Source: Verrucomicrobiota bacterium (GTDB lineage: Bacteria; Verrucomicrobiota; Verrucomicrobiia; Limisphaerales; J093). Taken from it: a stretch of DNA of 32,652 bases. The notes under the pieces are model-generated. The model ran no database searches and had not been told where the DNA came from. It saw nothing but the letters and a program-made list of their open reading frames with translations. The stretch lies in assembly GCA_022710935.1 (NCBI GenBank), contig JAKLFY010000070.1, forward strand, positions 1 through 32,652, given 5' to 3'. Within the stretch, counting starts at the first letter, position 1, and every line of letters begins with the position of its first letter. This document shows, in pieces, positions 11,559 to 30,740 of the stretch. Both the position numbers and the translations under genes were made by a program.

Positions 11559-11907
11559 ACGATCACGCTGGTCGACGAACACAGCAAGATTCGTGACAGC
11601 GTTTGCTTCGCTGAGCTTGCGCGTCACGTCTTCTTCAGCGAGACCGCCAAACCGCTGCCGCTCGAGCGCGTGCCAAACACAGCCTTCCTTGGCGCGTGCC
11701 GCGGGGTCGGCGTTTATCTCCTTTTCAACGGCATCCTCGGCGATAAGAGCGCGAACGGTGCCATCATGGCAGCAACCGCGTTGAACAGTCCCGAAGCCGT
11801 GGCGATGAGCGTGTTTGTGGTGCGAGCCTTTATGCAGATGCGAGAGCAACTGGCGGCCAACGCGGCGATTCTCAAACGGCTGTCGGAAATTGACAAGACG
11901 CTGCCGG
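11559..11907 (+). pseudogene. Fragment ending in an ORF6N-type C-terminal region
   Basis: One plus-strand frame runs through HSKIRDSVCFAELARHVFF and then NGAIMAATALNSPEAVAMSV, VVRAFMQMREQLAANAAILK and RLSEIDKTL. The second part matches the conserved C-terminal half of ORF6N (KilA-N-associated) proteins, which occur in phages and mobile elements. I do not recognise the first part (ERVPNTAFLGACRGVGVYLL and after), which may be a second fragment joined to it. Similarity ends at about 11907. There is no convincing start, and the frame then runs as a long shadow over the opposite glycosidase gene. It is treated as decayed. Confidence 0.5.
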
Positions 11908-11948
11908 CCTGCGCCATCGCCATCGCCACCGTCTTCGCGTTGAGCAAG

Positions 11949-11964
11949 ACTGGTGAGAAATGCG
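11949..11964 (+). repeat. ACTGGTGAGAAATGCG motif, third copy
   Basis: It matches the motif at 4371 and the inverted copy at 7751-7773 (consensus TGGTGAGAAATGCGGGC) with one or two changes. It lies exactly between the ORF6N fragment and the LamG fragment. Confidence 0.45.
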
Positions 11965-11966
11965 CG

Positions 11967-12300
11967 CTACCGCGCGACGATCCGATAGAACGAATGGGTG
12001 TGTACGCCGGCCGTGTCGCCTTCGTTGAAAAGGAGGAGGTCCAGGTCGGGATCGACGTTCGAGTAGAGGGAATGGCCTCCGTCCAGGGCTGCGCTTCCGG
12101 TGAAGACCAGGCGGCCATCGACATACCATCGCGCGGTGCCAAGGGCGAAGTCGGCCACGAAGGCCAGCCGATGCCAGGTGTCCGGGCGGACGGTGCCGGC
12201 GGCGGAATAGCCAAGGACGCCGATGCCGACGCGTCCGGACGGATCGATGCAGAGGTCGGCGTCATTGGGTTCCTGGTCGACGATGGGTGTCCACGTGATC
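11967..12300 (-). pseudogene. LamG/concanavalin A-like domain fragment
   Basis: On the minus strand the frame reads ITWTPIVDQEPNDADLCID, then DTWHRLAFVADFALGTARWY, VDGRLVFTGSAALDG and LYSNVDPDLDLLLFNEGDT. The W-H-R-l-A-f ... R-W-Y-V-D-G-x-L-V pattern is the core of LamG-like jelly-roll domains found in large secreted proteins of these phyla. The piece has no proper start: the apparent start region is the dispersed repeat at 12313-12358. It ends at the TGGTGAGAAAT repeat. It is an internal fragment of a lost gene. Confidence 0.65.
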
Positions 12301-12312
12301 CCGGCATCCCGC

Positions 12313-12358
12313 TCCCCATGAACCGCCGTTCCGTAGCCGTCCCGCATCGCGGGATGAG
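12313..12358 (-). repeat. Dispersed repeat, copy B (inverted relative to 4539-4585)
   Basis: Its reverse complement contains CCCGCGATGCGGGACGGCTA followed by CGGAAC and GGTTCATGGGGA, matching copy A with few differences. It borders the LamG fragment on one side and is 10 bases from the stop codon of the glycosidase gene on the other. Confidence 0.6.
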
Positions 12359-12368
12359 TCCACACAGG

Positions 12369-14990
12369 TCACAGAGCGGTGCGGAACGTGAGGTTCCCTC
12401 CCTGGGTTGGCTCGAGTCGCCGCGTGGAGCCGTCGGGCAGGTGCACGACCACGGCCCGGCAGTTGGCGGCAAGGGGCTTGACCGTGACCGTGGCGGTCTG
12501 GCCCTGGGTGTCCGCCTGAACCGTGAGATCGAGTGGACCGAACGGCGTCGCGATGCCCTCGAGCCGGGTGGTCATGCCGGGCCCGGTCCAGGCGCGCGGA
12601 AGGCCTTCGAGGAGGTGGAGTTCGTCGCCGCGATCCAAAGCCAACAGGTGAATGACCAACCGGATGAATTCCGCGCTCGCCCAATTGTGCGGCATGTCGC
12701 CCACCTTCCGGAACGTCTCGCCGCGCAGCGACTGCTCCTCACGCCAAACGCCGGTGGGCGCCGCGTGGTTCGCGAAGGCGTGCAGGACCTCGGCTGCCTT
12801 GGGTCCGTTGCCCTGCCACAACCACGCATGGCCATAGAACGACGCAAAGTAGTTCCAGATGCCGGTCGGGTCCCAACCGGTGCCGTACACCATCCCTTGA
12901 CGCTCCGTCGCCTCGAGCATGGCCAGCGTGCTTGCCACCAGCGGATCGTCCGGCGCAAAGACCTGCCCCGGGCAGACCGCGTGGCAGAAGGTCCACTGGC
13001 CGCGCTGGGGCAGTTCCGGACCGGCATTGGCCATGAAGATCGGCACGTAGGCGTTGCCCTGGCTGTCCCGAATCAGGTCCCGCCCGGACGCCTTCCGGAA
13101 GGTGGCGTGGAAATCGTCGTACTCTCGTTGCCAACGGGCGGCGTCGTCGGTTTTGCCCAACCAGTGGGCCGCCCGGATGAAGGCTCGCAGGCCGAGCAGG
13201 TTCCAGTGCGCATTCGAGAACTCGGGCCGCTTGAACCCGGTCGCGGCACCCGACAGACCGCCGTCGATTTCGCCGGGCGGATTGAGGCCGTCGTCCAGGG
13301 GGGTGTCGTTCTCGCGGCTGCGCCGCCGCAGTTCCTGGATATAGCGTGCCGCCCCTTCGAGCTTGGGCCAGACCGACTCGAGCCAGGCCTTGTCCTGGGT
13401 CAACGCGGCGTGCCGAGCGCAGGTCCAGAGCACGATCCCGTTCTCCTTGAAATAGTGCGGGCTGAGGACTTCGAACGCGCCGGAGGGCTTTTGCTGGCTG
13501 AGTGTGTAGGCGATGCCGCTGCGGGCTTCGCGGCCGGCCCCCAGCATCGTGACGGCTTCGAGCAGGAATGCGCCGTCCACCAGCCACAAACCCCGGTAGC
13601 ACGTCGGGCCGACCTGGAACACCGGCAGCCCCTGCTTGATCTCCCGGGCCTGCCAAATGTTGCGGATCGAGGCATCCACCAGGTCCTGGATCGCCGGGGA
13701 CGGCACCTGCACCCGCCCGAACGGCACAGGCGCTTTCTCCCAGTAGGCGGTCGACTCCTCGAGGCAGCGCCTGGCCTGGGCAACCGTGCGCGGCTCGATT
13801 ACGATCGTGCCGCCCCCACTGCACAGCACAAAGAACATCGCTTCCCCGCCGGCGGGAACCGCGAGCGGTTCGAGCTGGATCTCGCGCCGCACCGCCTTGT
13901 CCGAGGCCAGACCGGTCATGGACAGCGAGGACGTCACGGTTTCGTGATCGTTGATCCGGATCCGTTGCGCGTCGGGCTGGAAAGAGAATGGCAACGTGGT
14001 CTCGACGACCAGACGCGGTTCGAGTGTGCGCGCCTCGACGCCGAGGTTCCGCACCTGCACCAGGATCAGGTCGTTCCGCGGCGGTCCGCCGGGACTGGCG
14101 AGGTTCATCCGGGTCAGCGCCGCACCGTTGAGCGCGCCTGCGAGAAGCGCGGCGGTGTCGACCTTGGCCTGGGCTGGAAAGACCCAAAGGCCATTCAGAA
14201 TCGTGTTCTTGTCCCCGGCCTCCGAGGCGGCGTCGATCGCGATGTCGATGCGGCTGTCGGCGTTCGCATCGCGCGCATCGAACCAGTAAGCACGCGCCTG
14301 GTTCTTGCCAATGTCCGCCACGGTGTCCACCGTCCGGTCGGCGGCCCCTTCGACCCGCAAGACCTGCACGCGTTTTCCGGGTTCACTCCACCAGCCTTCG
14401 CACAGGGCCAGGGCAACGCGTCTCGAGGCGCCCGGCGGCACCGCCAACTCGTACCGGATGCTGCCTGCCATATGCACTGCGATGTCCGCAAGCGAGGCGT
14501 CCGCGCCCTCGGGCAGGTCGGCCCAGTTGCGGTTCACGCCGCCGCCGGCATCGACGCGCCGGAGGTCGTTCGTGGGGGCTTCCGGCGCCGCAAGTCGGGC
14601 GGTAACGGCAAAGGCCTCTTCGACGATCTTCAGCCCGTCCACCCCGCGATGGGTTCGGACCCGCGGGACGCGTGCCGAAGCCAGTTCCTGCTTTTCCCAC
14701 GCTGCGCCGACACCGAGATCCACACCGATCCGGGTGGCGAATTCGCGTCCGCCCTGGCCGTAGTGGTACAGCAGCTCGCCGCTGCGATCGACGAGCGTCT
14801 TGCACGGATCGTCCGGCAGACAGATCGCCGTCTGCCATTCGGGCGGCGCGTACCGGAAGTCGACAATGCCGGCGCCACTATCCGGATTCGCCGCCGCGGC
14901 GGTCGCGGCAAGGGCCAGCGACACCAGCCTGGAAACCTCGCGGCCGAACGAGTGGCGCCCGCTTGAGAGTCTGGGCATGCGTGTGGACAT
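12369..14990 (-). CDS. Secreted six-hairpin glycosidase-like protein
   Basis: The ATG at 14990 (or 14978) gives about 873 residues with an N-terminal signal region (SRLVSLALAATAAAANP). The first half is beta-rich (about 35-400). The second half, from about VQVPSPAIQDLVDASIRNIW (residue 430), has an (alpha/alpha)6 toroid pattern with CYRGLWLVDGAFLLEAVTML, KENGIVLWTCARHA, FSNAHWNLLGLRAF and YGHAWLWQGNG. The C-terminal ~90 residues (GIATPFGPLDLTVQADTQG) form the small beta-sandwich usual in alpha-L-rhamnosidase, GH63 and GH95-like enzymes. It likely hydrolyses a glycan in the periplasm, but family and substrate cannot be fixed by eye. It is divergent from the next glycosidase-like gene at 15157, and the 166 bases between them would hold both promoters. 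Confidence 0.75.
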   Translation of the reverse strand: MSTRMPRLSSGRHSFGREVSRLVSLALAATAAAANPDSGAGIVDFRYAPPEWQTAICLPDDPCKTLVDRSGELLYHYGQGGREFATRIGVDLGVGAAWEKQELASARVPRVRTHRGVDGLKIVEEAFAVTARLAAPEAPTNDLRRVDAGGGVNRNWADLPEGADASLADIAVHMAGSIRYELAVPPGASRRVALALCEGWWSEPGKRVQVLRVEGAADRTVDTVADIGKNQARAYWFDARDANADSRIDIAIDAASEAGDKNTILNGLWVFPAQAKVDTAALLAGALNGAALTRMNLASPGGPPRNDLILVQVRNLGVEARTLEPRLVVETTLPFSFQPDAQRIRINDHETVTSSLSMTGLASDKAVRREIQLEPLAVPAGGEAMFFVLCSGGGTIVIEPRTVAQARRCLEESTAYWEKAPVPFGRVQVPSPAIQDLVDASIRNIWQAREIKQGLPVFQVGPTCYRGLWLVDGAFLLEAVTMLGAGREARSGIAYTLSQQKPSGAFEVLSPHYFKENGIVLWTCARHAALTQDKAWLESVWPKLEGAARYIQELRRRSRENDTPLDDGLNPPGEIDGGLSGAATGFKRPEFSNAHWNLLGLRAFIRAAHWLGKTDDAARWQREYDDFHATFRKASGRDLIRDSQGNAYVPIFMANAGPELPQRGQWTFCHAVCPGQVFAPDDPLVASTLAMLEATERQGMVYGTGWDPTGIWNYFASFYGHAWLWQGNGPKAAEVLHAFANHAAPTGVWREEQSLRGETFRKVGDMPHNWASAEFIRLVIHLLALDRGDELHLLEGLPRAWTGPGMTTRLEGIATPFGPLDLTVQADTQGQTATVTVKPLAANCRAVVVHLPDGSTRRLEPTQGGNLTFRTAL

Positions 14991-15156: not shown

Positions 15157-17295
15157 ATGCGTACAAGGCTACTCTCGAATCTGGGGTTGGGGATGGCGTT
15201 CCTGCTGGCAGTTGCCATCCCGCGCGCGTTTGCAGGTGAACCGCCGGCCCATCGGACAACTCCCGCCACGGCGGTTTATGACGGCCGGTTCTGCGCCGGG
15301 GAAGGCGATGTCGATTTCCTGCGGCTGATCGACGAGTCATTCGCCTTCTTCCATCCCAACCCGATTGTTCCGAACCTGACGATGCTGTACCAGCCCGAGT
15401 GGGATACGTTCGTCGAGGCGGGCGGCTGGCGTGGCTGGTGGATTCAGAACAGTTACGGACTTTCCTACGCGGCCACGCCGTTCCTCCCGGAACCGTGGTT
15501 CTCGACCCTGCAGCGGTCCTGGGACCTGTTCTGGGGCAGCCAGGGTGACGGCAAGCGCCAGGGCGGCTGGAGCACTCCCGACTATCCGGGCCATACGCTG
15601 GTGGCTCCGGATGGCTGCCTGGGCGACTGTGCTGCGCCCGGCATCATCATGTACAAATAGGGGGACGGCGACGTGAGCCGGCACGACTGGTTCCACGAAG
15701 CGACGGCGGCCGGCGTGGTGATGCAGGCCGAGATCCTGCTGGCCAGCCGGAACCGCCAGGCGCTCGCACACTACCTCCCGAAGATGGTGCGGGCCTGCGA
15801 CTCGATCGAACGAACCCGCGATCCCCAGAACAACTTGTTCCTGGTCGGCCCGGCCTCGAACCTCCTCGCGCCCAGCTACGGCGGCGTCAAACAGCCGGAC
15901 GGATCGTTCGGCAAGGGCTATTTGGCGGGGCTTTCGATCACCTACCTGGCCGCCCTGGACCGCATGGTCGAGCTGCTCCGATTGGCGGGTGAAACCGAGA
16001 AGCTCGGGGAGTACGAGCGGCGCCAGACGATCACGCGAAGGTCCCTGCCCCTCCTGCTCGCTCCCGCCGGCTACTTCGTCAAGTCGGTCGAACCCGGTGG
16101 CATCCTGCACGGCGTCCTGGGCCAGAAGCAATTCAACTATCTCGAAGGCACGGTCAACGCCGATGCCGTGGGACTGCGCGTGGCCGACGACCAGACCGCC
16201 GCGAGCATCTACCGGCAGATCGCCGCCTTCCCCGATATCCGCCCGTTCGATTTCCTGCTCGTCAACGCCCCGGGCCTCGACGATACGTACTGGAATTGGG
16301 GCCACAGGACCGGACCGGGCCTCGACGGCATTCTTGCCTTCGGCGAATGGGTCAACGGCGGCGTGTGGGCCACAGTCGAGGGGCGCGCCATCCTCATGTA
16401 CTACCGGCTCGGCAGGTTCGAAGATGTCCGCCGCTCCGCCGTCCGCGCGATGAAATGGGCCAAGGACTACCGGATGGACTCTCCATGGTCGCAGCGCGGC
16501 GAGAACAGCGACAACTCGTGGTACGACGAGGGGAAATGGCTGCATGGAAACGGCATCAAGGTCACGGCCGACAACTACGCCATTCCCGCCGCAACGATCC
16601 GGGGGTTGTTCGACTACGACTATCGCAGTGACCGCCTCATTCTGCGGCCGCGTGTGCCTGGCGGCATCACCCGTTACACCCAGAAGGAGCCCATCCGTTT
16701 CGGCGACAGGCGGCTCTTCCTCACCTGCCGCAACGGGGGGCCGCGCGTTAGCTCGGTTCGCCTCAACGGACAACCCGTCGAGGTCGCGTCGCCCGAGGCG
16801 GTGGTGCTCGGCTATGACGCGCTGCCGACAGAAGCCCATCTCGAAATCACGACCACGGGCGGCTGGCTGCACGAGCCGTCGACAGTGGTGTATCCGGCCA
16901 TCCCTCCTCTCGTCCCGCCGCCGGGTTCACCGACGCCGGCCCGCGCGGAACTGCCGGCATCGCTCCAGCGACCTTTCGCGCTGCTTTCCGCGATGGCGAA
17001 GTCCCTGGCTTCCGCATCCGGCGCGGACTACGAGCGCGCGTTTGTGGCCGCGGCGCTTGGCGCCTTCGAGGATTACCGGCTCCGGGCGGCACTCGAACCC
17101 GGGCCGGGCTACTACCGTCCGATCACGCCCAAGCGGCGCACGGCCCTCAGTGAGTTTTACGAGCAAACCGCGCTGATGATGTACGACGGTTGGGTCCGCC
17201 GGATGAAGGTCTACGCGGAGAAAGGCGACGCGCGACAGAAAGGCGTGGCGGGGCTGTTTGCCGAGGCGCAGAAGGCGTCGGCGAGCCAGCCTTGA
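15157..17295 (+). pseudogene. Glycosidase-like (alpha/alpha toroid) gene interrupted by one in-frame TAG
   Basis: The frame starts at ATG 15157 with a signal peptide (GLGMAFLLAVAIPRAFAG). It continues for 711 sense codons to 17295 except for a TAG at 15658-15660, between IIMYK and GDGDVSRHDWFHEA. Both halves are conserved in character and in the same frame. They show an aromatic-rich toroid pattern: GWRGWWIQNSYGLSYAATPF, DDTYWNWGHRTGPG, GGVWATVEGRAILMYYRLG, DNSWYDEGKWLHGNGIKVTA. A beta domain follows (RLILRPRVPGG), then a helical tail. CAG to TAG is a single transition, consistent with a nonsense mutation, a sequencing error or suppression. GTG 15673 could restart the second part. Enzyme class is uncertain; a six-hairpin or GH36-like glycosidase is likely from the neighbourhood. 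Confidence 0.7.
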
Positions 17296-19647: not shown

Positions 19648-21990
19648 CTACTTCACCCCAAACACGCTCCGGACCGCCTCCAGGTACTTGAAACCGTGAA
19701 CGGTGTCGGGCTCCAGGTAGCTGCCTTCCGTCCATTCGTTCCAGCAATTGATGTTGAGGATCCGCGGCGCACCCGGCCGGGCGAGCAGCCGTTCTTTCGT
19801 CTTCTCCAACGCCGTGCAGAAGTTCTCCGGCGTGTTGTTCCCGATCGTGTTCGTGAACGGATAGCCGAAGTCGCCAAACTCGTCCTCCTGCGCCGCGCGC
19901 GGACTGGAGTCCCAGCCCATGCTCACGTTCGGGAAATAGGGCACGCCAAACAGCTTCACAGCCTGATCCCAGTACTTGAAATACTCGTCGCGCACCAGGT
20001 TGTAGTCCGTTACCTGCGTGGGCAGCGGCACATGGTGAATCCAGACGTAGGAGGTGACGGAGTCAAAGCCCAGATCCCGCACCAACTGGGCGGCATCGGC
20101 CGGCTTCTTCTCTTGCGGCAGGATTGGCTGGCCCCAGACGACCGCGTTAAGATGCAGCCCTGCCAACCCGGACGTCCGCGCACGGGCACGAAACTGATCT
20201 AAGGCCTCACGGGTGGCCTCGACGCTCCCGAAGCTGTCCAGGAGCTTGGTCAGGTCGTAGAACGAGAAGTACGGGCGTCCGTCAATTCGCCAATAGGACG
20301 GGTGCGGGAAGTAGTTCTTGATGAGGTGATCGCCAATCCGCGCGAACGTTGCCGGCGTCACCTTGCCGGGAAACAGGAGCTTCTGCGGGGTGCCCCGTTT
20401 GTAGGGCTGGATTTCCAGCCAATCGTGGTTGGCCCACATGAAGGCGAATTTGAGGCGGTGGTTGTTGGTCGCCTGCAGAAAGCCGATGTCGATGGGCCGA
20501 TCCAGGAACGGGCCGTCGTCGTAGTAGTACCAGTCGAAGATGAAGGCATCGATCCCGTGGTCCGCCGCGGCCGCGATCTTCTGCGCCATGACCTTGGGAT
20601 CGGATTCGTCGAGGTACCCCCATAGCGGCACCTTGGGTTGCTGGTGTCCGGGGAACCGCGGCTTGGCCGCTTTGACCAGTTCCCACTCCGACCACGCAGC
20701 CCCCTTCATCTTGCTGTTGCGCCGATCACCGGGGTGGTAATTGCCAAAGTAGTAGGTGGCGACGGTGATGGGCTCGACCGCATCCCTTGCCCAGATGGCT
20801 TTGATGGTTTCCTCCTGATTGAAGCCCTCAGGCGTGGCCGCGCTCGGCGTGTTGGCCCAATACCACCATTGGCCTTTGACGGGCGCATGCAGCGTGCGGC
20901 TGCCGGGCATTTGCAGCCACCCGTTGGTGTCGTAATCGCGCAGCCAACTCCACGCGTAACGCAGCCATTCGTTGCGATACGGCTCCGGCTGACGCGCAAA
21001 CCAACTGATCTCGTCGTATCCCCACGTGAAATACGGCGTGCCTGATTGGCCCGGCTTGGCGCTGACGCCATAGTTGTCCAGCTCGACGAGGTAAGGCAGG
21101 TGCGCGCAACTCCAGCCGCTGGGCGTCAAACCGCCCGCGCTCCGGCCGTAGATCGTGTCCAAATGCCCCACTCTCAGCACGCCTTCCTGCGGCTTGCCCG
21201 GCACCTCGACAATCCGCAGTGGAAACGAATGAAAGTCCAGGAGCAGCCGGCCCTCGTGGACAATACCGCCCCCCGGCACATGGGCGTCGCACAGGACGAA
21301 ATGCCGCCGGGCGTGGCGGGCAGCGTAGGCACGCACCCGCCCCAGCAGATCGCGCCAGTGCACGTGGTCCTTGTCGCGCTCATCCATGATCTCGACCTGA
21401 CCGAAATGGATGGCCTCCACGCCGATGTCCATGTACGCCCCCGCCAGAAACAGGAACCATAGCCGGGTCTCGATCTGGCTGATGTCGGGCACCGAACCGC
21501 CCTTGCTCCACTGATCCACGCGGCGACCGTTGGGGTAGAGCATCGCCTCGTAGCGGAAGTTGCGCTGCTCAACCGGCAGTTCGAACTCGCGGAAAACCCA
21601 CTCCGGCACCGGCACCTGACCGACGGCGGTGGTGACGATCTCGAAACAGGCGGCCTGCAGGATCAAGTCCGGATCGGCGCGGTGCGCCTGCTCGGCGATC
21701 GGCGCGGCGGTCTCCAGCAGCCCCGGCAGCTTGTCCTCGCCGCCCCAGCGATAGATGGCGCGTCCGACGAATTTGGCGCCGGTATTGGTCAGGAAGCGGA
21801 GGTTATCCGCCACGTCCCCCTTACCGTGGAGGAACTCGGAGAATGTCACGGCTCGGGATAGGTAGTTGTCGAGGACCGCGCGCGACACCTGGCCGTCGAA
21901 ACGATAATCGCGCTCCGCCGCCCCCGCGCTCTTCGCCAGCGCCAAGATCGCGATCAGGAGGGTGATGGGACTCATTTGCATGCCCTGCAT
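19648..21990 (-). CDS. Secreted two-domain protein with a C-terminal GH99-like (WbsX) domain
   Basis: The ATG at 21990 is chosen for the AAGGAG site 5 bases upstream and the signal peptide after it (MSPITLLIAILALAKSAGAA); it gives 780 residues. The first part (about 25-400) has many aromatic residues and motifs such as GAKFVGRAIYRWGGE and HFVLCDAHVPGGGIVHEGRL, suggesting a glycoside-hydrolase-like barrel that I cannot place. From about 408 the sequence ITVATYYFGNYHPGD, KVPLWGYLDESDPKVMAQKI, GIDAFIFDWYYYDDGPFLDR, FAFMWANHDW, RPYFSFYD and LNINCWNEWTEGSYLEPD follows the WbsX/GH99-like family. That family includes endo-mannosidase-like barrels and proteins of O-antigen loci. The protein probably acts on mannose-type or mixed glycans outside the cytoplasm. 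The truncated GH16 gene lies just upstream on the same strand. Confidence 0.8.
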   Translation of the reverse strand: MQGMQMSPITLLIAILALAKSAGAAERDYRFDGQVSRAVLDNYLSRAVTFSEFLHGKGDVADNLRFLTNTGAKFVGRAIYRWGGEDKLPGLLETAAPIAEQAHRADPDLILQAACFEIVTTAVGQVPVPEWVFREFELPVEQRNFRYEAMLYPNGRRVDQWSKGGSVPDISQIETRLWFLFLAGAYMDIGVEAIHFGQVEIMDERDKDHVHWRDLLGRVRAYAARHARRHFVLCDAHVPGGGIVHEGRLLLDFHSFPLRIVEVPGKPQEGVLRVGHLDTIYGRSAGGLTPSGWSCAHLPYLVELDNYGVSAKPGQSGTPYFTWGYDEISWFARQPEPYRNEWLRYAWSWLRDYDTNGWLQMPGSRTLHAPVKGQWWYWANTPSAATPEGFNQEETIKAIWARDAVEPITVATYYFGNYHPGDRRNSKMKGAAWSEWELVKAAKPRFPGHQQPKVPLWGYLDESDPKVMAQKIAAAADHGIDAFIFDWYYYDDGPFLDRPIDIGFLQATNNHRLKFAFMWANHDWLEIQPYKRGTPQKLLFPGKVTPATFARIGDHLIKNYFPHPSYWRIDGRPYFSFYDLTKLLDSFGSVEATREALDQFRARARTSGLAGLHLNAVVWGQPILPQEKKPADAAQLVRDLGFDSVTSYVWIHHVPLPTQVTDYNLVRDEYFKYWDQAVKLFGVPYFPNVSMGWDSSPRAAQEDEFGDFGYPFTNTIGNNTPENFCTALEKTKERLLARPGAPRILNINCWNEWTEGSYLEPDTVHGFKYLEAVRSVFGVK

Positions 21991-22042
21991 GGTTTCTCCT
22001 TGGTTACGGCTGCTTCGGCAGCATGACACTCTTGAACTTGTT

Positions 22043-22513
22043 TCAGTGTCGAACCGTGACTCGGACGGGCGAGCCACCCTCCGACGGCAATTCCCAGACC
22101 TGGACCGTGCCCCGCGGCTTGGCCGCGAGGGGACGCACGTCCACACCCACCGCGTGGTAGCCGTTGGTCGGTGGACTCGCAGAACCGGGGGCTTCTCCGG
22201 CGCGCTCTCGCCCTTCCCGTTTCCAGGTGCGCATGTAGTCGATGCTGAACGTGGCCGGCAGCGCGTCGTCCTTGGGCAGGCCAAACCAGCCGGCGAAGGT
22301 CTCGCTGTCAAAGCACAGTGCCAGCGGCTGGTGCCAATGCGTGTTGCGCTCCTCGCGGACGACCGCGCCATCGACCGTGAATCGCAGGACTCCCGGGTCC
22401 CATTCGAGGCCGCAAACGTGAAACTCCTGGGCCAGGTTGTAGGGCGCCTTCCAGATGCGGCTCTTGTGCCAGTGCACGGTCTCGACCAGCGTGTGGAACA
22501 GATGCGTGTTCAT
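22043..22513 (-). pseudogene. GH16 glycosidase, C-terminal half only
   Basis: The minus strand encodes NTHLFHTLVETVHWHKSRIW, APYNLAQEFHVCGLEWDPGV, LRFTVDGAVVREERNTHWHQ, PLALCFDSETFAGWFGLPKD and TFSIDYMRTWKR. The order (VHxH, FHVyGlEWd, i-x-y-vDG, THWHQPL, DSETxxxWFGxP) is the second half of agarase/carrageenase-type GH16 beta-jelly rolls. The catalytic ExDxxE segment, which should come before this, is absent. A tail of about 50 residues (GVDVRPLAAKPRG) may be a linker. The 5' break lies near 22520, next to unrelated DNA and the TfoX stub. It is inactive as it stands. Confidence 0.8.
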
Positions 22514-22638
22514 TGAGGGGGCAATCAACGTCGTCCGCGACCATGGACCAGACGGCGCAGGCGAGCCAAGGGCACATTAAACCAAGTCGGGCGGTTCGTT
22601 GAAATGGCTTGAGAGTTCTCATGCTGGGGTTGGCAATT

Positions 22639-22731
22639 TCATTCCCCACCGAACATGGGCTTGGACGTAACCGGGGCGATCGGCTCCAGTTGCTCAACGA
22701 CGAAATCCCGGTAGCGCTTGGAGAACGCCAT
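22639..22731 (-). pseudogene. N-terminal stub of a TfoX/Sxy-like protein
   Basis: From an ATG at 22731 the minus strand reads MAFSKRYRDFVVEQLEPI followed by APVTSKPMFGG, then a stop. This is the first helix and the MFGG turn of the TfoX N-terminal domain, a small protein family that includes the competence regulator of gamma-proteobacteria. Family members continue for about 70 more residues after MFGG. The stub is therefore a 3'-deleted gene. No other part of it is visible. Confidence 0.65.
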
Positions 22732-22990
22732 GCAGTGGGAGATTGCGCCAGAGCCTCGACCTGTGCAATCTTCCAGGCGATGAGTAGCAACGCTCCGCCC
22801 CAGACCAACCAGGGACGCCATTGGCTCGTCTGCGATGGGCCTCGCCCGCGGTTTGGGGCGTTGGACGCCTCGTCAAGAGCCGCCGCGGCGCGGCGCGGTG
22901 CCAAGGCTGAATTCGGGAGCAGAGAGGAGGCCCGTGCCGTCGTCTGGAAGGACCGCGCGCTGACCAGAGACTCGCTGATCGAGGACTGCG

Positions 22991-23227
22991 ATGAGTGCTG
23001 AAATCGAACGTAACCTGGGCGAACAACCGATCGCCCGCATCATGCGGGAGCACAACCTCAAACCGCACCACCTCGTGGCGACGTCGCCCGTGGAGATGAC
23101 GCACAAGATGGTCTCCCGGGCGTGTAAAGGCAGGCGGCTCACGTCGAACACGCAGTCGAAAGTCCTCCAGGCACTGAACCGCGCCACCGGAAAGAACTAC
23201 TCCCTCGCGGGTCTGTTCAATTATTGA
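22991..23227 (+). CDS. Small helix-turn-helix-like protein preceding the radical SAM gene
   Basis: The 78-residue product has the core REHNLKPHHLVATSPVEMTH, then KMVSRACKGRRLTSNTQSKV and LQALNRATGKNYSLAGLFNY. The helical pattern, the basic KGRRLT turn and the closing ALNxAtGkxYxLxxLFxY resemble short Cro/XRE-like helix-turn-helix proteins, and similar small proteins are known to me as conserved hypotheticals in Planctomycetes and Verrucomicrobia. A GAGG lies 6 bases before the ATG. It ends 24 bases before the ATG of the pseudo-ATPase/radical SAM gene, so the two are probably co-transcribed. It may repress or sense the operon, or act as its partner protein; no function is established. Confidence 0.75.
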   Translation: MSAEIERNLGEQPIARIMREHNLKPHHLVATSPVEMTHKMVSRACKGRRLTSNTQSKVLQALNRATGKNYSLAGLFNY

Positions 23228-23251
23228 GCTCACGCCTCTTCGGTGTTCGGT

Positions 23252-25372
23252 ATGCACATCGAGTTCCTCCGCGCGGAGAACGTGCGCCATGTGGCGCCAT
23301 CCGACTACGATTTCAGCAATGGACGGGGCGCCATCCGCCGGTGGACGGTGTTGCCGGCGAGTGAAGCGTCGGACGCGCTCTTGCGTTGCTTGACCCTGGC
23401 AAGTCTGGGGCAGCGGCAAACGCCCGTGTTGGCGGCCAAACTCAGCACAACGTTGGGCGTGCGTTCCGAGCGTCCGGCGCGACTGGAATACACGCTCATC
23501 TACCACGCCCCGCAAGAGCGGGCGCCCCACCGCCCCGTGCGCCGGCAGTCGGGATGGCAGCTCGGGGCAGACGGTGATGTTGCCCCCCTGGCACGGGCCG
23601 CCATGCGATCAACCAGATCTGGAGCGGCGTACAGCCGTCCGGAACTCGGCAGGTCGCACATCGGGCGGCTGTTGATCGGCTATGGTCGTCGGGTCACGCC
23701 CCACGCTGGCACAGACCAGTTCGGCATTTACCCGGACCAGCGGGTGAGGCGTTGTGCCGGATTGTTCGATGTCCGGGCGCGCGTCACGGATCCGCTGGCC
23801 TTTCTTCAGCGCCTTCGCCAGAAGAGCCGTTATCGGGCGGGACGCGCGCGCGCCTTGCTCGTCCGGCTGACTGTGGACCTGTCAGAGTGGCTCGGCTGGG
23901 ACGTCGCCGACAGCCTGACTCGACCCGGCGAGTTGGAAGAGCGCTGGAAAGCCACGCCTGCAGCGCGGCGGACGCCGGCGGTCGTGCTTCTCGACATCGC
24001 CCGGCACGCTTACGACGCCACGGAACGCTCGTTCGACCCGAACCCGCTCCTGCAGCCCGGAGTGGTGTTGCTGGCCGCGGCGGATACCTGGTGCGAAGCC
24101 CGCGGGCTGGCGCGTTTTCTCGGGATGCTGGGCGCGCGGTTTCCCAACCTGCAATTTGTCGTCACCCTTTCGGCATCGGCTCGCCGCAGTTTCCCGGCGC
24201 GTTTGGTCCGGCAACGCCTCCCGATTCCCGAGGCCCAACCACGCCCAAGGCCGGTCCCTGTTCGCCGGCTGGCCCCCTCGACCGTGTTGCTGGTGGACGC
24301 GGACAGCACTCTGCCGAACCTGGCGTTGATGAAGCTCAGCCGGCATTTCAAGTCCCAAGGCCGGAGGGTGGTTCTGGCGCGTGGCGTGCGTTCGCTTCCC
24401 CTGGCCGGGACGGTGCTGGCCAGTTGTGTGTTCAGCACGACGGCGTCGGCGAAGCGAGTCGGGGTGCTGCGGGATCGGTTCGGGGACACTCTCCAACTGG
24501 GCGGTTCGGGCGTCGATCTCCACCGGCGCCTGGCGCCGGAGATCGAGGCTCTGGCCTCAGACTACGCGCTGTACCCGGAGCTCGGTGACCGCGCCATCGG
24601 TTTCCTGACACGCGGGTGTCCCATGCATTGTCCCTTCTGCATCGTGCCCAAGAAGGAGGGACTGCCGCGCCGGGTCAGCGATCTGGACAGTTTGCTGCAA
24701 GGGCGCAAGAAGCTGATCCTGCTCGACGACAACCTGCTGGCTCACCCCGACGGCCTCGAATTGCTCGAGGAAATGGCCCGCCGCAGTTTGCAGGTCAACT
24801 TCAACCAGACCCTCGATCTGCGGCGGCTCACGCCCGAGGCGGCCGGTTTGCTCCGCCGGATTCCCTGCACCAACGCGGCGTTCACTCGCCGCACATACTA
24901 TTTCAGTCTCAATGACGCGCGTCGCCTCGATCTGGTGCGCCGACGGTACGCTCTGCTGCAACCGTGCCACTCGGATAACGTCGAGTTCGTCTGCATGTAC
25001 GGGTTCAACACCACGTTGGCGGAAGATGTCGAACGGTTTCGCTTTCTGCGCTCGCTGCCGGGGGCGTATGTGTTCGTTCAGCGTTACCAGCCCATCCCCG
25101 GCGGTCCGCCGGCGAACCTCAACCGATTCTTCGACAACCGGGCTGACGCCCTGATCAGCGAGTTGGTGCGAATCATCTATCGCCAGAACATGAAGAGCAT
25201 GGAGACGTACTATCGCTGGCTGGCTCTCCAATACGCCGCACAGTGTGGGTGCATCCATCACGTCCTGGTCGAGACGCTGTTCCGATACAACGGCCGCTCG
25301 CGTATGGCGGGATTCCTGCACCGACTGGAGAGACTTTCTGCCGCCCACGGCGACCCCGCCACTGGTCCGTGA
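23252..25372 (+). CDS. Fusion of a degenerate ABC/AAA-type ATPase domain with a radical SAM enzyme
   Basis: The ATG at 23252 is preferred over GTG 23243; neither has a strong ribosome site. Of 706 residues, about 1-330 follow the plan of SMC/ABC-like ATPases (EFLRAENVRHV, FSNGRGAIRRWTVL, LLIGYGRRVTPHAG, ARFPNLQFVVTLSAS). However, the Walker A position reads PASEASDA (35-42), the Walker B position LLAAAD (about 274-279), and the usual THS switch reads TLS. Nucleotide hydrolysis is therefore unlikely. Residues about 343-440 (TVLLVDADSTLPNLALMKLS, VFSTTASAKRV, QLGGSGVDL) look like a cobalamin-binding-type Rossmann domain without its His motif. The radical SAM core has C456-PMH-C460-PF-C463, LILLDDNLLAH and FNQTLDLRRL. 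A conserved tail follows (CMYGFNTTLAEDVERFRFLR, YQPIPGGPP, RQNMKSMETYYRWLALQYA). The substrate is unknown. Confidence 0.8.
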   Translation: MHIEFLRAENVRHVAPSDYDFSNGRGAIRRWTVLPASEASDALLRCLTLASLGQRQTPVLAAKLSTTLGVRSERPARLEYTLIYHAPQERAPHRPVRRQSGWQLGADGDVAPLARAAMRSTRSGAAYSRPELGRSHIGRLLIGYGRRVTPHAGTDQFGIYPDQRVRRCAGLFDVRARVTDPLAFLQRLRQKSRYRAGRARALLVRLTVDLSEWLGWDVADSLTRPGELEERWKATPAARRTPAVVLLDIARHAYDATERSFDPNPLLQPGVVLLAAADTWCEARGLARFLGMLGARFPNLQFVVTLSASARRSFPARLVRQRLPIPEAQPRPRPVPVRRLAPSTVLLVDADSTLPNLALMKLSRHFKSQGRRVVLARGVRSLPLAGTVLASCVFSTTASAKRVGVLRDRFGDTLQLGGSGVDLHRRLAPEIEALASDYALYPELGDRAIGFLTRGCPMHCPFCIVPKKEGLPRRVSDLDSLLQGRKKLILLDDNLLAHPDGLELLEEMARRSLQVNFNQTLDLRRLTPEAAGLLRRIPCTNAAFTRRTYYFSLNDARRLDLVRRRYALLQPCHSDNVEFVCMYGFNTTLAEDVERFRFLRSLPGAYVFVQRYQPIPGGPPANLNRFFDNRADALISELVRIIYRQNMKSMETYYRWLALQYAAQCGCIHHVLVETLFRYNGRSRMAGFLHRLERLSAAHGDPATGP

Positions 25373-25755: not shown

Positions 25756-25802
25756 TGGTTCGACTATGAAACCGCGGAGCCCCAGGGTACGGTTCCGCGG
25801 AG

Positions 25803-26882
25803 ATGAAACGGTCTTTTCGTTACTTCGTCGCGTTGGCCGCAGCAATCAGCGCCGACGTGGGGACCGCCGCTGATCCCCCTCACATCGCCCCGGAGGCCAT
25901 CGAGTGGTGCAACATCTGGATTCCCGACGCCAACGAAACCAGACTGCCGCGAGTCCTCTTGATCGGCGATTCGATCACGGGCGGTTACGGGCCGAAAGTC
26001 GAGGAGGCGTTGAAAGGCAAGGCCTCGGTGGCCCGGTTGATGACCTCGAAGTCCATCGGTGACCCGGTGTTGCTGGCCGAGGTGGCGCTCGTGCTCGGTC
26101 AGTGCCGCTTCGACGTGGTCCATGTCAACAACGGCCTGCACGGCTGGGGCTACAGCGAAGAGGAATACCGGCAGCATTTCCCTGAACTCGTGGCCACAAT
26201 CCGCAAGCACGCCGCACAGGCCAAGCTGATCTGGGCGACGACCACCCCCGTGCGGCAGGCTGGCAACCTGAACGTGATGGCGGAAGATGCGAAGCGCGTT
26301 GAGGCCAGGAACAAGATCGCCGACGGGATCGTGGGCCGGGAGAAGATTGCGGTGAATGATCTCCTTGGCTTGGTGAAGGACCATCCTGAATGGTGGTCGG
26401 CGGATGGGGTGCACTTCAACGCCCAGGGCATCTCTGCCCAAGCTGCTCAGGTGGCAGTGGCGCAGAGGCGCGCCTGGCTGGCCCGCGGGAGCGGGGGACT
26501 AGCCGTACTCGGCGTGAACGACCCCACAAAACCGACCTGCCTGACCGGCGCATGGACGACCCCCGCCGAAGACGTGGCGCTGATGGGAAAGCACGCTTTG
26601 GTGGCTGGCGGCGACAAGGGCTTGCTCGTGTATGAACTTCAGCAGCATCTCTACGCACCGCTCGCACCGCCGGTCATGGCTGGCGGAAGGATGACCCTCT
26701 CCTGGCCGGCAATGGACGAAGTGCGTTTGCAGAAGACGACACGCCTGAGCCCCGCCGATTGGCAAGAAGGACCACAATCGGAGGGGACGAATGGGGTGTT
26801 CCTGCCGATGACCGATCCGATGGCGTTCTTCCGGTTGGTTCAAGGTGATGAGTTCATACCCCCGGATATACCCCCGGACTGA
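25803..26882 (+). CDS. Secreted SGNH/GDSL hydrolase continuing into the tail of an LVIVD-type protein
   Basis: The 359-residue product has a signal peptide ([18 protein letters not shown]). An SGNH hydrolase domain follows (about 35-225): [12 protein letters not shown] with the Ser nucleophile, [10 protein letters not shown] with the block III Asn, WATTTPVR, and DGVHFNAQG with the catalytic Asp and His. Such enzymes remove acyl or acetyl groups from glycans or lipids. From about 230 the sequence changes to [33 protein letters not shown] and [16 protein letters not shown], ending [18 protein letters not shown]. That is one LVIVD-repeat blade and the linker that in related proteins leads into a formylglycine-generating-enzyme-type domain. 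The hydrolase is complete; the second part looks like a foreign tail joined in frame. Confidence 0.75.
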
Positions 26883-28184: not shown

Positions 28185-29582
28185 TCAATTGCCCTCGCCC
28201 ATCGACTTCAACGCGAAGGCATCGAGCAACGTCTTGCGCGTGGCCGCCGCCAGCGTGCCGCCTTGGGCCAGCATCTTGTGCTGCGCCGACGTGGCTTGGC
28301 TTAACGCCGCCTGCTCCAGTCGTTCCCGCTCGGTGACCGAGAGCGAGCGCCAGAATTGGGCGATGGCTCGATCCCGGGCCTCCTCCTTCGCCTGGGCCGC
28401 CGCTTGTTGTTGTTCCTTACGCCGGGCTTCACGCGCGCGCCGCTCCTCGGTTTCGCGCCGACGTTGTTCCTGCGCGGCGTGATCCAGGAAATCTTTCGGT
28501 GGCGCGTATTCGCCGCGGATCGCACTCAAAAGGAAGCCCGGCGGATTGCGCGACACCTTCGGGTCCTTCTGGGCCACCAGGTAATCGAACACTTCAAGCT
28601 GCGGTTGGATGCGCGTCGCCGGATACTGCTTCACCGTGATTCGCGCCGTGGACGGGGAGACCCCGCGCGCGACAAGCGCCGCCACGAGTGCGTCCGCCGG
28701 TTCGCCCGGTTGAGCCGCCTCACCGTGCGCCTCCCCTTTCGCCTTCTCGAACACCACCCGCCACTCCCCGCTGCGCACTTTCAGGAAACGTTCCTGCTCC
28801 GACAACGCCCGCAGGTAGCCGCGCTCTTCCAGTTCGCTGATGCCGCCCCGCAGTTTACGTTTGAGATTCGCGCTGTCGTAGGCCCGGGACAGCCCCGCGT
28901 GCTCGCATGCGAATTCCTTCAGATCGAATTCCCAGCGGTCACGCCGGAAGAATCGCTTGTCCAGAAACCGGTAGAGCCGCCGCGCAATCGCGCTCTGCAG
29001 CTCGCGGAAGAAATCGAAATCGAGCCCTTTGAGGTTGCCAGCCTGGAAGCTGCGAAAGATCACCTCGTTCCAGACGAACACCGAACTGCCGGCCTCGTCG
29101 TCCGCGGCCATGCCGCCATTCTCGCGCTGAAACAGGCGCACGTTGTCCAGGACGTGGAACTTTTCGTCCACCCAGCATTGCTTGGCCTTGTTCCACCACG
29201 CCCGCTGGTAGTAGAGCGTGACCCCCGTCCACCGATTGAGCGACGCCTCGATCCGCTCGTAGCTCTTGCTCTCGTTGCGCCAGCCCAACAACTGGATCAA
29301 CTGGTAGCGCGTGAAGCGGACCGTGCGCTCGGCGAACTGGTTGAGGCGGGAAAGCTGGATCAGCCCGAGCAGAACCTCATCATCGAGCGCGGTGGGCAGA
29401 CCGTAAGCGTCCGATCCGGTGATGGTGAGCTGACGCGTGATGGTCTCGCCCCGGTGATCGTCCCAGACGCGGTCCTCGAACTGGAGGGTCTTCTGGTCCG
29501 GCCTCAGACGGTGCGCCAGGGCGCAGAGCGGAAACTCCGCCAGGTTCAGTTCGTCACGTCCATCGCTGGTCTTCTGTGGCAT
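28185..29582 (-). CDS. repA: Replication initiator protein A (RepA/RPA family)
   Basis: The ATG at 29582 is chosen over TTG 29615 because GAGGA lies just upstream; it gives 465 residues. The first 290 residues have the features of the replication initiator protein A family: DELNLAEFPLCALAHRL, DAYGLPTALDDEVLLGLIQL, TRYQLIQLLGW with a helix-turn-helix-like region, SYERIEASLNRWTGVTLYY, FRELQSAIARRLYRFLDKRF and FACEHAGLSRAYDSANLKRK. These proteins bind iterons and open a plasmid origin. About 380-430 is a highly charged coiled-coil-like stretch rich in Arg, Glu and Gln. The iteron array starts about 170 bases upstream of the start codon, and parA is divergent on its far side, the standard arrangement of a plasmid replicon. 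Confidence 0.85.
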   Translation of the reverse strand: MPQKTSDGRDELNLAEFPLCALAHRLRPDQKTLQFEDRVWDDHRGETITRQLTITGSDAYGLPTALDDEVLLGLIQLSRLNQFAERTVRFTRYQLIQLLGWRNESKSYERIEASLNRWTGVTLYYQRAWWNKAKQCWVDEKFHVLDNVRLFQRENGGMAADDEAGSSVFVWNEVIFRSFQAGNLKGLDFDFFRELQSAIARRLYRFLDKRFFRRDRWEFDLKEFACEHAGLSRAYDSANLKRKLRGGISELEERGYLRALSEQERFLKVRSGEWRVVFEKAKGEAHGEAAQPGEPADALVAALVARGVSPSTARITVKQYPATRIQPQLEVFDYLVAQKDPKVSRNPPGFLLSAIRGEYAPPKDFLDHAAQEQRRRETEERRAREARRKEQQQAAAQAKEEARDRAIAQFWRSLSVTERERLEQAALSQATSAQHKMLAQGGTLAAATRKTLLDAFALKSMGEGN

Positions 29583-29667
29583 CGAATCCTCTTCGATGCG
29601 CTCCTTCGCTTCCAAGATTCCTGGGCCTCCCTGGCCATCAACAACACCCCCCGCCCTGTTGCTGTTC

Positions 29668-29870: not shown

Positions 29871-29926
29871 TCCCCAACTTTTAGCACGTCCCGCCGGCTG
29901 CGGGTAGCCCCCGAATCCGCATACTT

Positions 29927-30020
29927 GTCCGCATACATGCTGGCTTGTCAGCAAACGTGCAAGCCAGCAGGACCGCATGCCCGCACACAAGCCCGGTTGC
30001 ATACATGTCCGCTTTCATGC
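29927..30020 (+). promoter_or_regulatory. Candidate partition centromere (parS/parC) upstream of parA
   Basis: GTCCGCATACATGC (29927-29940) and GTCCGCTTTCATGC (30007-30020) are near-identical direct repeats. GCATACATG recurs at 29999-30007. Between them TGCTGGCTTG (29938-29947) and CAAGCCAGCA (29960-29969) form a perfect 10-bp inverted repeat. In type Ib partition systems the centromere lies upstream of a short parA and is bound by a ribbon-helix-helix partner; both are present here. Confidence 0.55.
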
Positions 30021-30080
30021 TACGAAGTCATCATGCCCGCGAATCGAGACCGCGGGCGTTTTCATCCAAGGAGGGAGGTG

Positions 30081-30740
30081 ATGGTTATCGCGCTGAGCAA
30101 CTCGAAAGGAGGGGTGGGCAAGTCCACGCTGGCCGTCCACTTGGCCGTGTCGTGGCACGAAGAGGGGAGGCGCGTCGCATTGGTGGACGCCGACGTTCAG
30201 GGCTCGTCGTCGTTGTGGCTGCATGAAGCCGAGCCGCAACTGCCGGTCTTCCGCCTGCAAACGCCCGACGACGTCCTGGAGCAGGCGCCGCCGATCGCGG
30301 CCAAGTTCGAGCGGGTCGTCATCGACGGGCCGGCAGGTTTGTCGGAAGTCACGCGGGCCATCCTCTTGGTCGCCGACACCGCGTTGCTGCCGTGCGGGCC
30401 GTCGGTGCTGGACCTGCGCGCGGTCCACGAAGCCCTGCGCGTGGTCCGACAGGCGCAGCAGATACGGCAGGGCCCGCCCGTCCCGCTGCTGGTGCCCAAC
30501 AAGCTCCAGGTGCAGTACCGGCTGAGCCAGGAGTTGCTCGAAACGGCGAAGTCGCTGGGCATCCCTTCGCTGCCGGGCCTGCGGTTGCGCCAGGCGTACG
30601 CCGACGCCGCCGGCCAGGGGACTGTGGTGTGGAGATTGGGGCCGCGCGGTGAAGCGGCGGCAACGGAGTTGAAGAGCCTTTTCCAGGAGCTAACGGCTTA
30701 TGAATCGCCGAACACTCAGCGTCGCGCTGCAAACGGGTAG
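30081..30740 (+). CDS. parA: ParA-type partition ATPase (short, type Ib-like)
   Basis: The start ATG 30081 follows a strong AAGGAGGGAGG site; the frame upstream is open but covers the repeat region. The 219-residue product has the deviant Walker A K9-GGVGKST16, the A' motif VALVDADVQGSS and the switch motif VIDGPAGLSEV. It also shows the conserved PCGPSVLDLRAVHEAL and LVPNKLQVQYRLSQELLETA, ending GLRLRQAYADAAGQGTVVWR. There is no N-terminal DNA-binding domain, as in type Ib ParA proteins. It should use ATP-dependent, nonspecific DNA binding to move plasmid copies apart. It overlaps the next gene by 41 bases, which suggests translational coupling. Confidence 0.92.
   Translation: MVIALSNSKGGVGKSTLAVHLAVSWHEEGRRVALVDADVQGSSSLWLHEAEPQLPVFRLQTPDDVLEQAPPIAAKFERVVIDGPAGLSEVTRAILLVADTALLPCGPSVLDLRAVHEALRVVRQAQQIRQGPPVPLLVPNKLQVQYRLSQELLETAKSLGIPSLPGLRLRQAYADAAGQGTVVWRLGPRGEAAATELKSLFQELTAYESPNTQRRAANG

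What the first reader, a model, noticed from the sequence alone, without database searches (positions are those of the whole stretch)
22991..25372. Two-gene system: HTH-like small protein plus a pseudo-ATPase/radical SAM fusion
The large protein keeps the overall pattern of an ABC/SMC-like ATPase (ENVRH opening, RRWTVL strand, IGYGRR loop, FPNLQFVVT strand), but all three catalytic motifs are replaced: P-loop by PASEASDA, Walker B by LLAAAD, and the THS switch by TLS. It is fused to an intact radical SAM core (CPMHCPFC). Loss of every catalytic residue while the frame stays open suggests selection for a binding or scaffold role, for example presenting a nucleic acid, protein or nucleotide to the radical SAM site. 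The preceding small DNA-binding-like gene is likely co-transcribed. Radical SAM enzymes take part in RNA and peptide modification and in antiviral nucleotide synthesis, but none of these can be assigned here.
Basis: partly seen in the sequence, partly recalled or inferred. Interest (0 to 1): 0.82.

Follow-up and report, generated by a model that had tools for sequence, protein, structure and literature searches.

The report
Dead-ATPase / radical-SAM fusion protein
The large gene makes an uncharacterised enzyme in which a defence-type ATPase module, with its ATP-burning machinery lost throughout the family, is permanently joined to a radical-SAM enzyme; the small gene in front of it is only a chance neighbour.

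Summary
The large protein (ATG 23252-25372, 706 aa) is real and is one of a conserved family. Full-length relatives occur in Verrucomicrobiota and Desulfobacterota. AlphaFold2 plus structure search shows residues 1-322 have the fold of PtuA, the Septu/retron ABC ATPase (Z 21), and residues 342-680 a cobalamin/MTTase-type radical SAM fold (Z 15-17). None of 25 aligned N-termini has a P-loop lysine, a Walker B glutamate or an H-loop histidine. Yet the domain is under purifying selection (dN/dS 0.16-0.34) and has its own invariant residues (W232, D248-x-x-R251-H252, G270, Q301). The 'two-gene system' is wrong: the small gene is absent beside every other copy, including a 93% identical second copy in the same genome, and homology breaks between the two genes at 23233/23237. 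The partner that does recur, in Desulfobacterota only, is an HTH plus DruA (DUF4338) protein. Flanks are not defence islands. Best guess: a non-hydrolysing PtuA-like platform that docks substrate or partner for a radical SAM modification of a nucleic acid. The substrate is not shown.

The parts
22991..23227 (+). Small 78-aa protein, possibly HTH-like; not part of the system
   Evidence: Only sub-threshold matches (phrog_9103 E 0.041, LysM_OapA E 0.047). Found in 5 of 58 related genomes; absent beside all other copies of the large gene.
23233..23237 (.). Junction of two unrelated paralogous blocks
   Evidence: Homology to contig C6, which carries the small gene, ends at 23233. Homology to C235 and to the same-genus genome G001, which carry the large gene, begins at 23237.
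23252..25372 (+). Pseudo-PtuA / radical SAM fusion protein, 706 aa (annotated frame opens with GTG 23243)
   Evidence: Conserved full length in relatives; AlphaFold2 mean pLDDT 86.
23252..24217 (+). Residues 1-322: PtuA-type ABC ATPase head, catalytic motifs lost
   Evidence: Domain model pLDDT 88.4, pTM 0.89; VIA Z 21.1 to retron PtuA 9vhe_C and 20.0 to Septu PtuA 8eea_D, against 12.7-14 for SMC/Rad50/RecF; profile match to PtuA chains E 1e-8.
23354..23377 (+). Residues 35-42, PASEASDA, at the P-loop position
   Evidence: No GK[ST] in the first 90 residues of any of 25 relatives.
23993..24007 (+). Residues 248-252, invariant D-x-x-R-H in the helix that carries the ABC signature in PtuA
   Evidence: Columns 248, 251 and 252 invariant in 25 of 25.
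24062..24085 (+). Residues 271-278, VVLLAAAD, degenerate Walker B
   Evidence: Aligned by HMMER to PtuA 'GIVLIDEIELH'; the Glu position is never E in 25 sequences.
24164..24172 (+). Residues 305-307, TLS, in place of the THS H-switch
   Evidence: The His position is never H in 25 sequences.
24275..25291 (+). Residues 342-680: Rossmann-like domain plus radical SAM barrel and C-terminal helices
   Evidence: VIA Z 17.1 MgmA, 15.9 TsrM, 15.8 MiaB, 15.4 RimO; phrog_9298 E 1.7e-44.
24617..24640 (+). CPMHCPFC, CX3CX2C iron-sulphur cluster motif
   Evidence: C456, C460 and C463 invariant in 27 of 27.

Best explanation
The large gene encodes a single-protein accessory enzyme. Shown by computation: (1) the N-terminal part is a PtuA-type ABC ATPase head (Septu and type I-A retrons) that lacks the residues for ATP hydrolysis in every family member but is kept under selection; (2) the C-terminal half is a radical SAM catalytic unit with an N-terminal Rossmann-like domain, of the cobalamin/MTTase fold type, and belongs to a radical SAM family that also exists alone in phages and plasmids (phrog_9298); (3) the two halves travel together across phyla as an accessory gene that is often gained, lost or decayed; (4) in part of the Desulfobacterota branch it sits beside an HTH plus DruA (GNAT-like) protein. 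Inferred: the dead PtuA head works as a docking and probably dimerising platform, with D-x-x-R-H and neighbouring residues in place of the nucleotide site, and presents a substrate, most likely a nucleic acid (tRNA or DNA, the targets of active PtuAB), to the radical SAM site, which alters it by 5'-deoxyadenosyl-radical chemistry. Where DruA is present it could add a second, GNAT-type step, as the two catalytic halves of Elp3 do in tRNA. The small upstream gene takes no part.
For: Fold. Sequence link to PtuA. Family-wide loss of catalytic residues with new invariant residues. Purifying selection in both halves. Radical SAM identity and invariant CX3CX2C. Full-length co-conservation. HTH-DruA partner: with an N-terminal HTH module not seen in the unlinked DruA frames compared. 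PtuAB acts on tRNA-Tyr (PMC11555353, PMC13096335) or nicked DNA (cited in PMC11555353). DUF4338 read as GNAT-like (PMC10853773). MiaB, a structural match, modifies tRNA (own knowledge).
Against: Nothing here identifies the substrate. MgmA, the best single radical SAM match, modifies a protein (Gln methylation of methyl-CoM reductase). Verrucomicrobial copies have no conserved neighbour at all, so partner-based inference does not carry over to the window. No conserved auxiliary-cluster cysteines or DxHxxG cobalamin motif were seen in the alignments. Dimerisation and nucleic-acid binding were not tested. The Elp3 analogy rests on a published fold assignment of DUF4338 and on own knowledge.
Confidence: 0.4

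Rival explanations
1. The fusion is a protein- or peptide-modifying radical SAM enzyme: the dead PtuA head recognises a protein partner, and the radical SAM domain methylates or cross-links it, as MgmA does.
For: MgmA is the best single radical SAM structural match (Z 17.1), and class B radical SAM enzymes often modify peptides or proteins.
Against: No precursor peptide or other recurrent small gene next to the family in the cluster search of ORFs of 70 aa or more. MiaB and RimO score within about 2 Z units, so the fold does not discriminate.
Confidence: 0.25
2. It is an anti-phage defence effector rebuilt from Septu and Druantia parts.
For: PtuA fold, a DruA-domain neighbour in Desulfobacterota, patchy distribution and pseudogenes.
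Against: No PtuB, DruE or other recurrent defence gene among 89 flanking ORFs, which are ordinary metabolic and regulatory genes. DruA is common and multicopy in these genomes regardless. The catalytic residues required for Septu defence (PMC13096335) are missing.
Confidence: 0.25
3. It is a passenger or a working part of a mobile element (with DruA as a recombinase-like partner).
For: Homology between copies stops within tens of bases of the gene or of the DruA pair; two copies in this genome lie on different contigs; very similar DruA + rSAM units sit in two differently binned MAGs.
Against: No terminal inverted repeats or target duplications found. DruA is read as GNAT-like, not as a DDE/HUH transposase (PMC10853773). 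Low copy number.
Confidence: 0.12
4. The two window genes form a conserved HTH/radical-SAM operon.
For: Same strand, 24 bp between the small gene's stop and ATG 23252.
Against: The small gene is absent beside the 93% copy in the same genome, the 90% copy in the same genus and all other relatives. It occurs without the large gene elsewhere, and homology breaks between them.
Confidence: 0.03
5. The N-terminus is a decaying remnant and only the radical SAM half functions.
For: All ATPase motifs lost; N-terminal identity is lower than C-terminal identity.
Against: dN/dS 0.16-0.34 in eleven pairs; 11 invariant columns; same length and confident fold across phyla.
Confidence: 0.05

Closest known systems
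PtuA of Septu and type I-A retrons (Ec78/Eco7, Ec83)
   Same: Fold of residues 1-322 (Z 19-21); sequence profile match in the signature to H-loop region (E 1e-8).
   Different: No Walker A lysine, Walker B glutamate or H-loop histidine in any member; no PtuB HNH nuclease neighbour found; fused to radical SAM.
phrog_9298 standalone phage/plasmid radical SAM proteins
   Same: Residues 348-617 match the family (E 1.7e-44); shared N-terminal 'D-x-D-x-x-x-PNLALMK' strand and helix and CX3CX2C.
   Different: The standalone proteins lack the PtuA-like domain and most of the C-terminal helical region.
Cobalamin/MTTase-fold radical SAM enzymes (MgmA, TsrM, MiaB, RimO)
   Same: Overall fold of residues 342-680 (Z 15-17).
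   Different: Short Rossmann domain (about 100 residues); no conserved auxiliary-cluster cysteines or DxHxxG motif seen.
DruA (DUF4338) of Druantia
   Same: Neighbouring gene in nine loci of the Desulfobacterota branch; PF14236 domain at E 1e-35 to 1e-37 in the three tested.
   Different: Has an extra N-terminal HTH_29-like module; no DruE helicase found nearby; absent next to the window copy.
Elp3 (own knowledge)
   Same: Pairs radical SAM with a GNAT domain; tRNA substrate.
   Different: Analogy only: no sequence relation shown; here GNAT-like and radical SAM parts are separate genes, and only in one branch.

Membership tests
Septu PtuA | PtuA-type ABC head fold | tested here: met
   VIA Z 21.1 / 20.0 over about 280 residues; hmmsearch E 1.3e-8
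Septu PtuA | Catalytic Walker A and B motifs (both required for Septu defence, PMC13096335) | tested here: not met
   0 of 25 with GK[ST]; no Walker B Glu; no H-loop His
Septu PtuA | Adjacent PtuB HNH nuclease | tested here: not met
   Recurrent-neighbour search found none; no PtuB among 89 flanking ORFs of 180 aa or more; smaller or divergent ORFs not excluded
Radical SAM superfamily | CX3CX2C motif | tested here: met
   Invariant C456, C460, C463
Radical SAM superfamily | Partial TIM-barrel radical SAM fold | tested here: met
   Z 15-17 to MgmA, TsrM, MiaB, RimO; PF04055 matched only below its gathering score
Cobalamin-dependent (class B) radical SAM | Cobalamin-binding Rossmann domain | tested here: inconclusive
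   Fold match includes this domain, but it is short and has no DxHxxG motif
Cobalamin-dependent (class B) radical SAM | Cobalamin bound and methyl transferred | not testable with these tools
   Needs purified protein
MiaB/RimO methylthiotransferases | Three conserved Cys for an auxiliary cluster in the N-terminal domain | tested here: not met
   Besides C456/C460/C463 the only invariant Cys is C581
phrog_9298 radical SAM | Profile match over most of the family model | tested here: met
   E 1.7e-44, model 3-259 of 305
Druantia | DruA protein at the locus | tested here: not met
   Not met for the window: no DruA by the large gene. A DruA-type neighbour is present in the relatives L013, L014, L016, L017, L020, L021, L025, L027, L029
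Druantia | DruE helicase at the locus | tested here: not met
   No DruE among 89 flanking ORFs at E <= 1e-15

The most novel reading that the evidence does not exclude
A new class of nucleic-acid-modifying machine in which the substrate-sensing ATPase of an anti-phage system (PtuA) was stripped of ATP turnover and fused to a radical SAM catalyst, so that instead of cutting tRNA or DNA the complex chemically alters it, with an HTH-DruA (GNAT-like) partner as a second enzyme in Desulfobacterota.
Probability: 0.25. Interest if true: 0.85.

Novelty: new variant of a known kind. Interest (0 to 1): 0.6.

Why it matters
Active PtuA needs its ATPase to drive immunity. A conserved, selected, ATPase-dead PtuA fused to a radical SAM enzyme gives a natural test of what the PtuA head does apart from ATP turnover (target recognition, assembly). 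It also adds a cross-phylum radical SAM family with no assigned function, and no such fusion turned up in the libraries or open papers searched here.

Tried and rejected
Small gene as partner: rejected. Defence-island context: PADLOC scan of 89 flanking ORFs showed nothing recurrent; RtcR/PspF hits are likely ordinary sigma-54 regulators, and mad2/mad3 and reverse-transcriptase hits occur once or twice. DruA presence anywhere in the genome as evidence: uninformative, it is multicopy in nearly all of these genomes. Transposon ends around the gene: no terminal repeats. Functional hint from phage neighbours of the standalone radical SAM family: DNA methyltransferase, SSB and terminase genes recur nearby, but few MTases are adjacent by a crude motif test, so no substrate can be inferred. 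The weak match of residues 119-190 to RisS sensor domains in phmmer is not borne out by the structure. The viral structure library gave no confident match for the N-terminal domain. Literature: no paper in the library joins DruA with radical SAM; one query on fusions of this kind returned none.

Full report
What is in the window. The two ORFs are as described: 22991-23227 (78 aa) and 23243-25372 (709 aa from GTG; homologues begin at ATG 23252, 706 aa). The window is a whole contig (C228) of a 7.5 Mb genome assembly whose close relatives are Verrucomicrobia MAGs.

The small gene. A 729-bp block, carrying the 78-aa gene and its upstream DNA, is 83% identical to a block on contig C6 of the same genome, and that homology ends at 23233. 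A 2.4-kb block on contig C235 is 94.5% identical to the large-gene region and begins at 23237; the same-genus genome G001 also begins at 23237. No other copy of the large gene has the small gene beside it. The small gene is found in 5 of 58 relatives and not in G001, which has the large gene. It is a genuine gene (dN/dS about 0.25), but the pair is a junction of two separate blocks. Because this is a draft assembly, a chimeric join cannot be fully excluded, though the conclusion is the same either way.

The large protein as a family. A scan of 84,980 species genomes gave 31 loci, most of them full length, at 41-90% identity in Verrucomicrobiota, Desulfobacterota and a few others (some possibly misbinned). 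It is accessory: among 97 relatives, few carry it intact (G000, G001, G010, G066); G013 has pieces and G005 an 80-residue remnant. In a 395-genome sample of the phylum of G105, seven genomes matched, one of them to the radical SAM part only. L028 is a pseudogene with many stops. The own genome has a second copy at 93%.

The N-terminal domain. The full-length model has mean pLDDT 86 and the domain alone 88.4 with pTM 0.89. Structure comparison puts it with PtuA: Z 21.1, rmsd 3.6, 280 aligned residues to retron PtuA; Z 20.0 to Septu PtuA; with SMC, cohesin, Rad50, RecF and AriA behind at 12.7-15. A profile of the family finds PtuA chains in the PDB by sequence (E 1e-8), aligned through the signature region, Walker B and H-loop; PADLOC PtuA models match several members. 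At the active site, 0 of 25 sequences have GK[ST], the Walker B glutamate position is never E (commonly LLDRPD; LLAAAD in the window) and the switch position is never H. New invariant residues appear instead: Y144, L171, L188, W232, D248, R251, H252, G270, P298, Q301. dN/dS is 0.16-0.34 in this domain in eleven pairs, against 0.11-0.27 in the radical SAM half. This is a selected pseudo-ATPase.

The radical SAM half. C456, C460 and C463 are invariant. Residues 342-680 match MgmA (Z 17.1), TsrM (15.9), MiaB (15.8), RimO (15.4), AprD4 and OxsB, and phrog_9298 at E 1.7e-44. Standalone relatives are common on viral contigs (at least 586 matches) and occur on plasmids. L056 (genome G071) carries a 407-aa standalone version, 41% identical, without the PtuA-like part.

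Neighbours. In Verrucomicrobiota no neighbour is conserved. In nine loci of the other branch (L013, L014, L016, L017, L020, L021, L025, L027, L029) an HTH plus DruA gene lies next to the fusion, overlapping or just downstream in most, upstream in two, truncated or broken in three (L013, L016, L027). Pfam gives DruA E 1e-35 to 1e-37 in the three tested. The tree fits an old association with later losses (4 changes against 6.9 in shuffles) but does not prove one origin. Unlinked DruA frames compared lack the N-terminal 'GIWRIKRAK' module. DUF4338 has been described as a GNAT-like domain (PMC10853773). Flanks show no recurrent defence genes.

Mechanism. PtuAB of retron-Eco7 depletes tRNA-Tyr (PMC11555353), Septu of E. 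coli B88 cleaves the tRNA-Tyr variable loop and needs Walker A/B (PMC13096335), and another Septu is reported to act on nicked DNA (cited in PMC11555353). A PtuA head that keeps its fold but not its chemistry, joined to a radical SAM enzyme, is most simply a recognition and assembly platform for a radical modification. Nucleic acid is the favoured substrate by analogy only; a protein substrate (as for MgmA) is the main rival. Steps shown: fold, loss of motifs, selection, fusion, partner in one branch. Steps inferred: scaffolding, dimerisation, substrate, DruA cooperation.

Noticed in passing
window 28185-29615 (-) and 29925-30740 (+): Plasmid-type replication initiator (RPA, E 9.5e-19) next to a ParA/AAA_31 protein: the contig may be or contain a plasmid or integrated replicon.
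   Followed up: partly
L056 7570-10452 (-): 960-aa AEP-TOTE primase plus SF2 helicase plus DUF559 protein in the neighbourhood of a standalone radical SAM gene closely related to the window's radical SAM half.
   Followed up: no
L013 and L017: About 95% identical HTH-DruA + fusion units in MAGs labelled Desulfobacteria and Chloroflexi; recent transfer or misbinning; the DruA gene of L013 has an internal deletion.
   Followed up: partly
L058 (G013 C18) and L028: Broken copies of the fusion gene (frameshifts, fragments), showing repeated decay.
   Followed up: partly
window 22041-23233, 21534-21657, 25757-25810: Patchwork of short blocks 83-96% identical to contigs C6 and C235 of the same genome, suggesting recent recombination around this locus.
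   Followed up: partly
window 11670-14966 (+) and 15673-17295 (+): Long ORFs (1098 and 540 aa) without any Pfam match at E 1e-3; whether they are genes was not checked.
   Followed up: no
G099 (genome of L027, delta proteobacterium NaphS2): Nine DruA-domain hits, several of the same length (292 or 297 aa frames), suggesting that solo DruA genes multiply within genomes.
   Followed up: no
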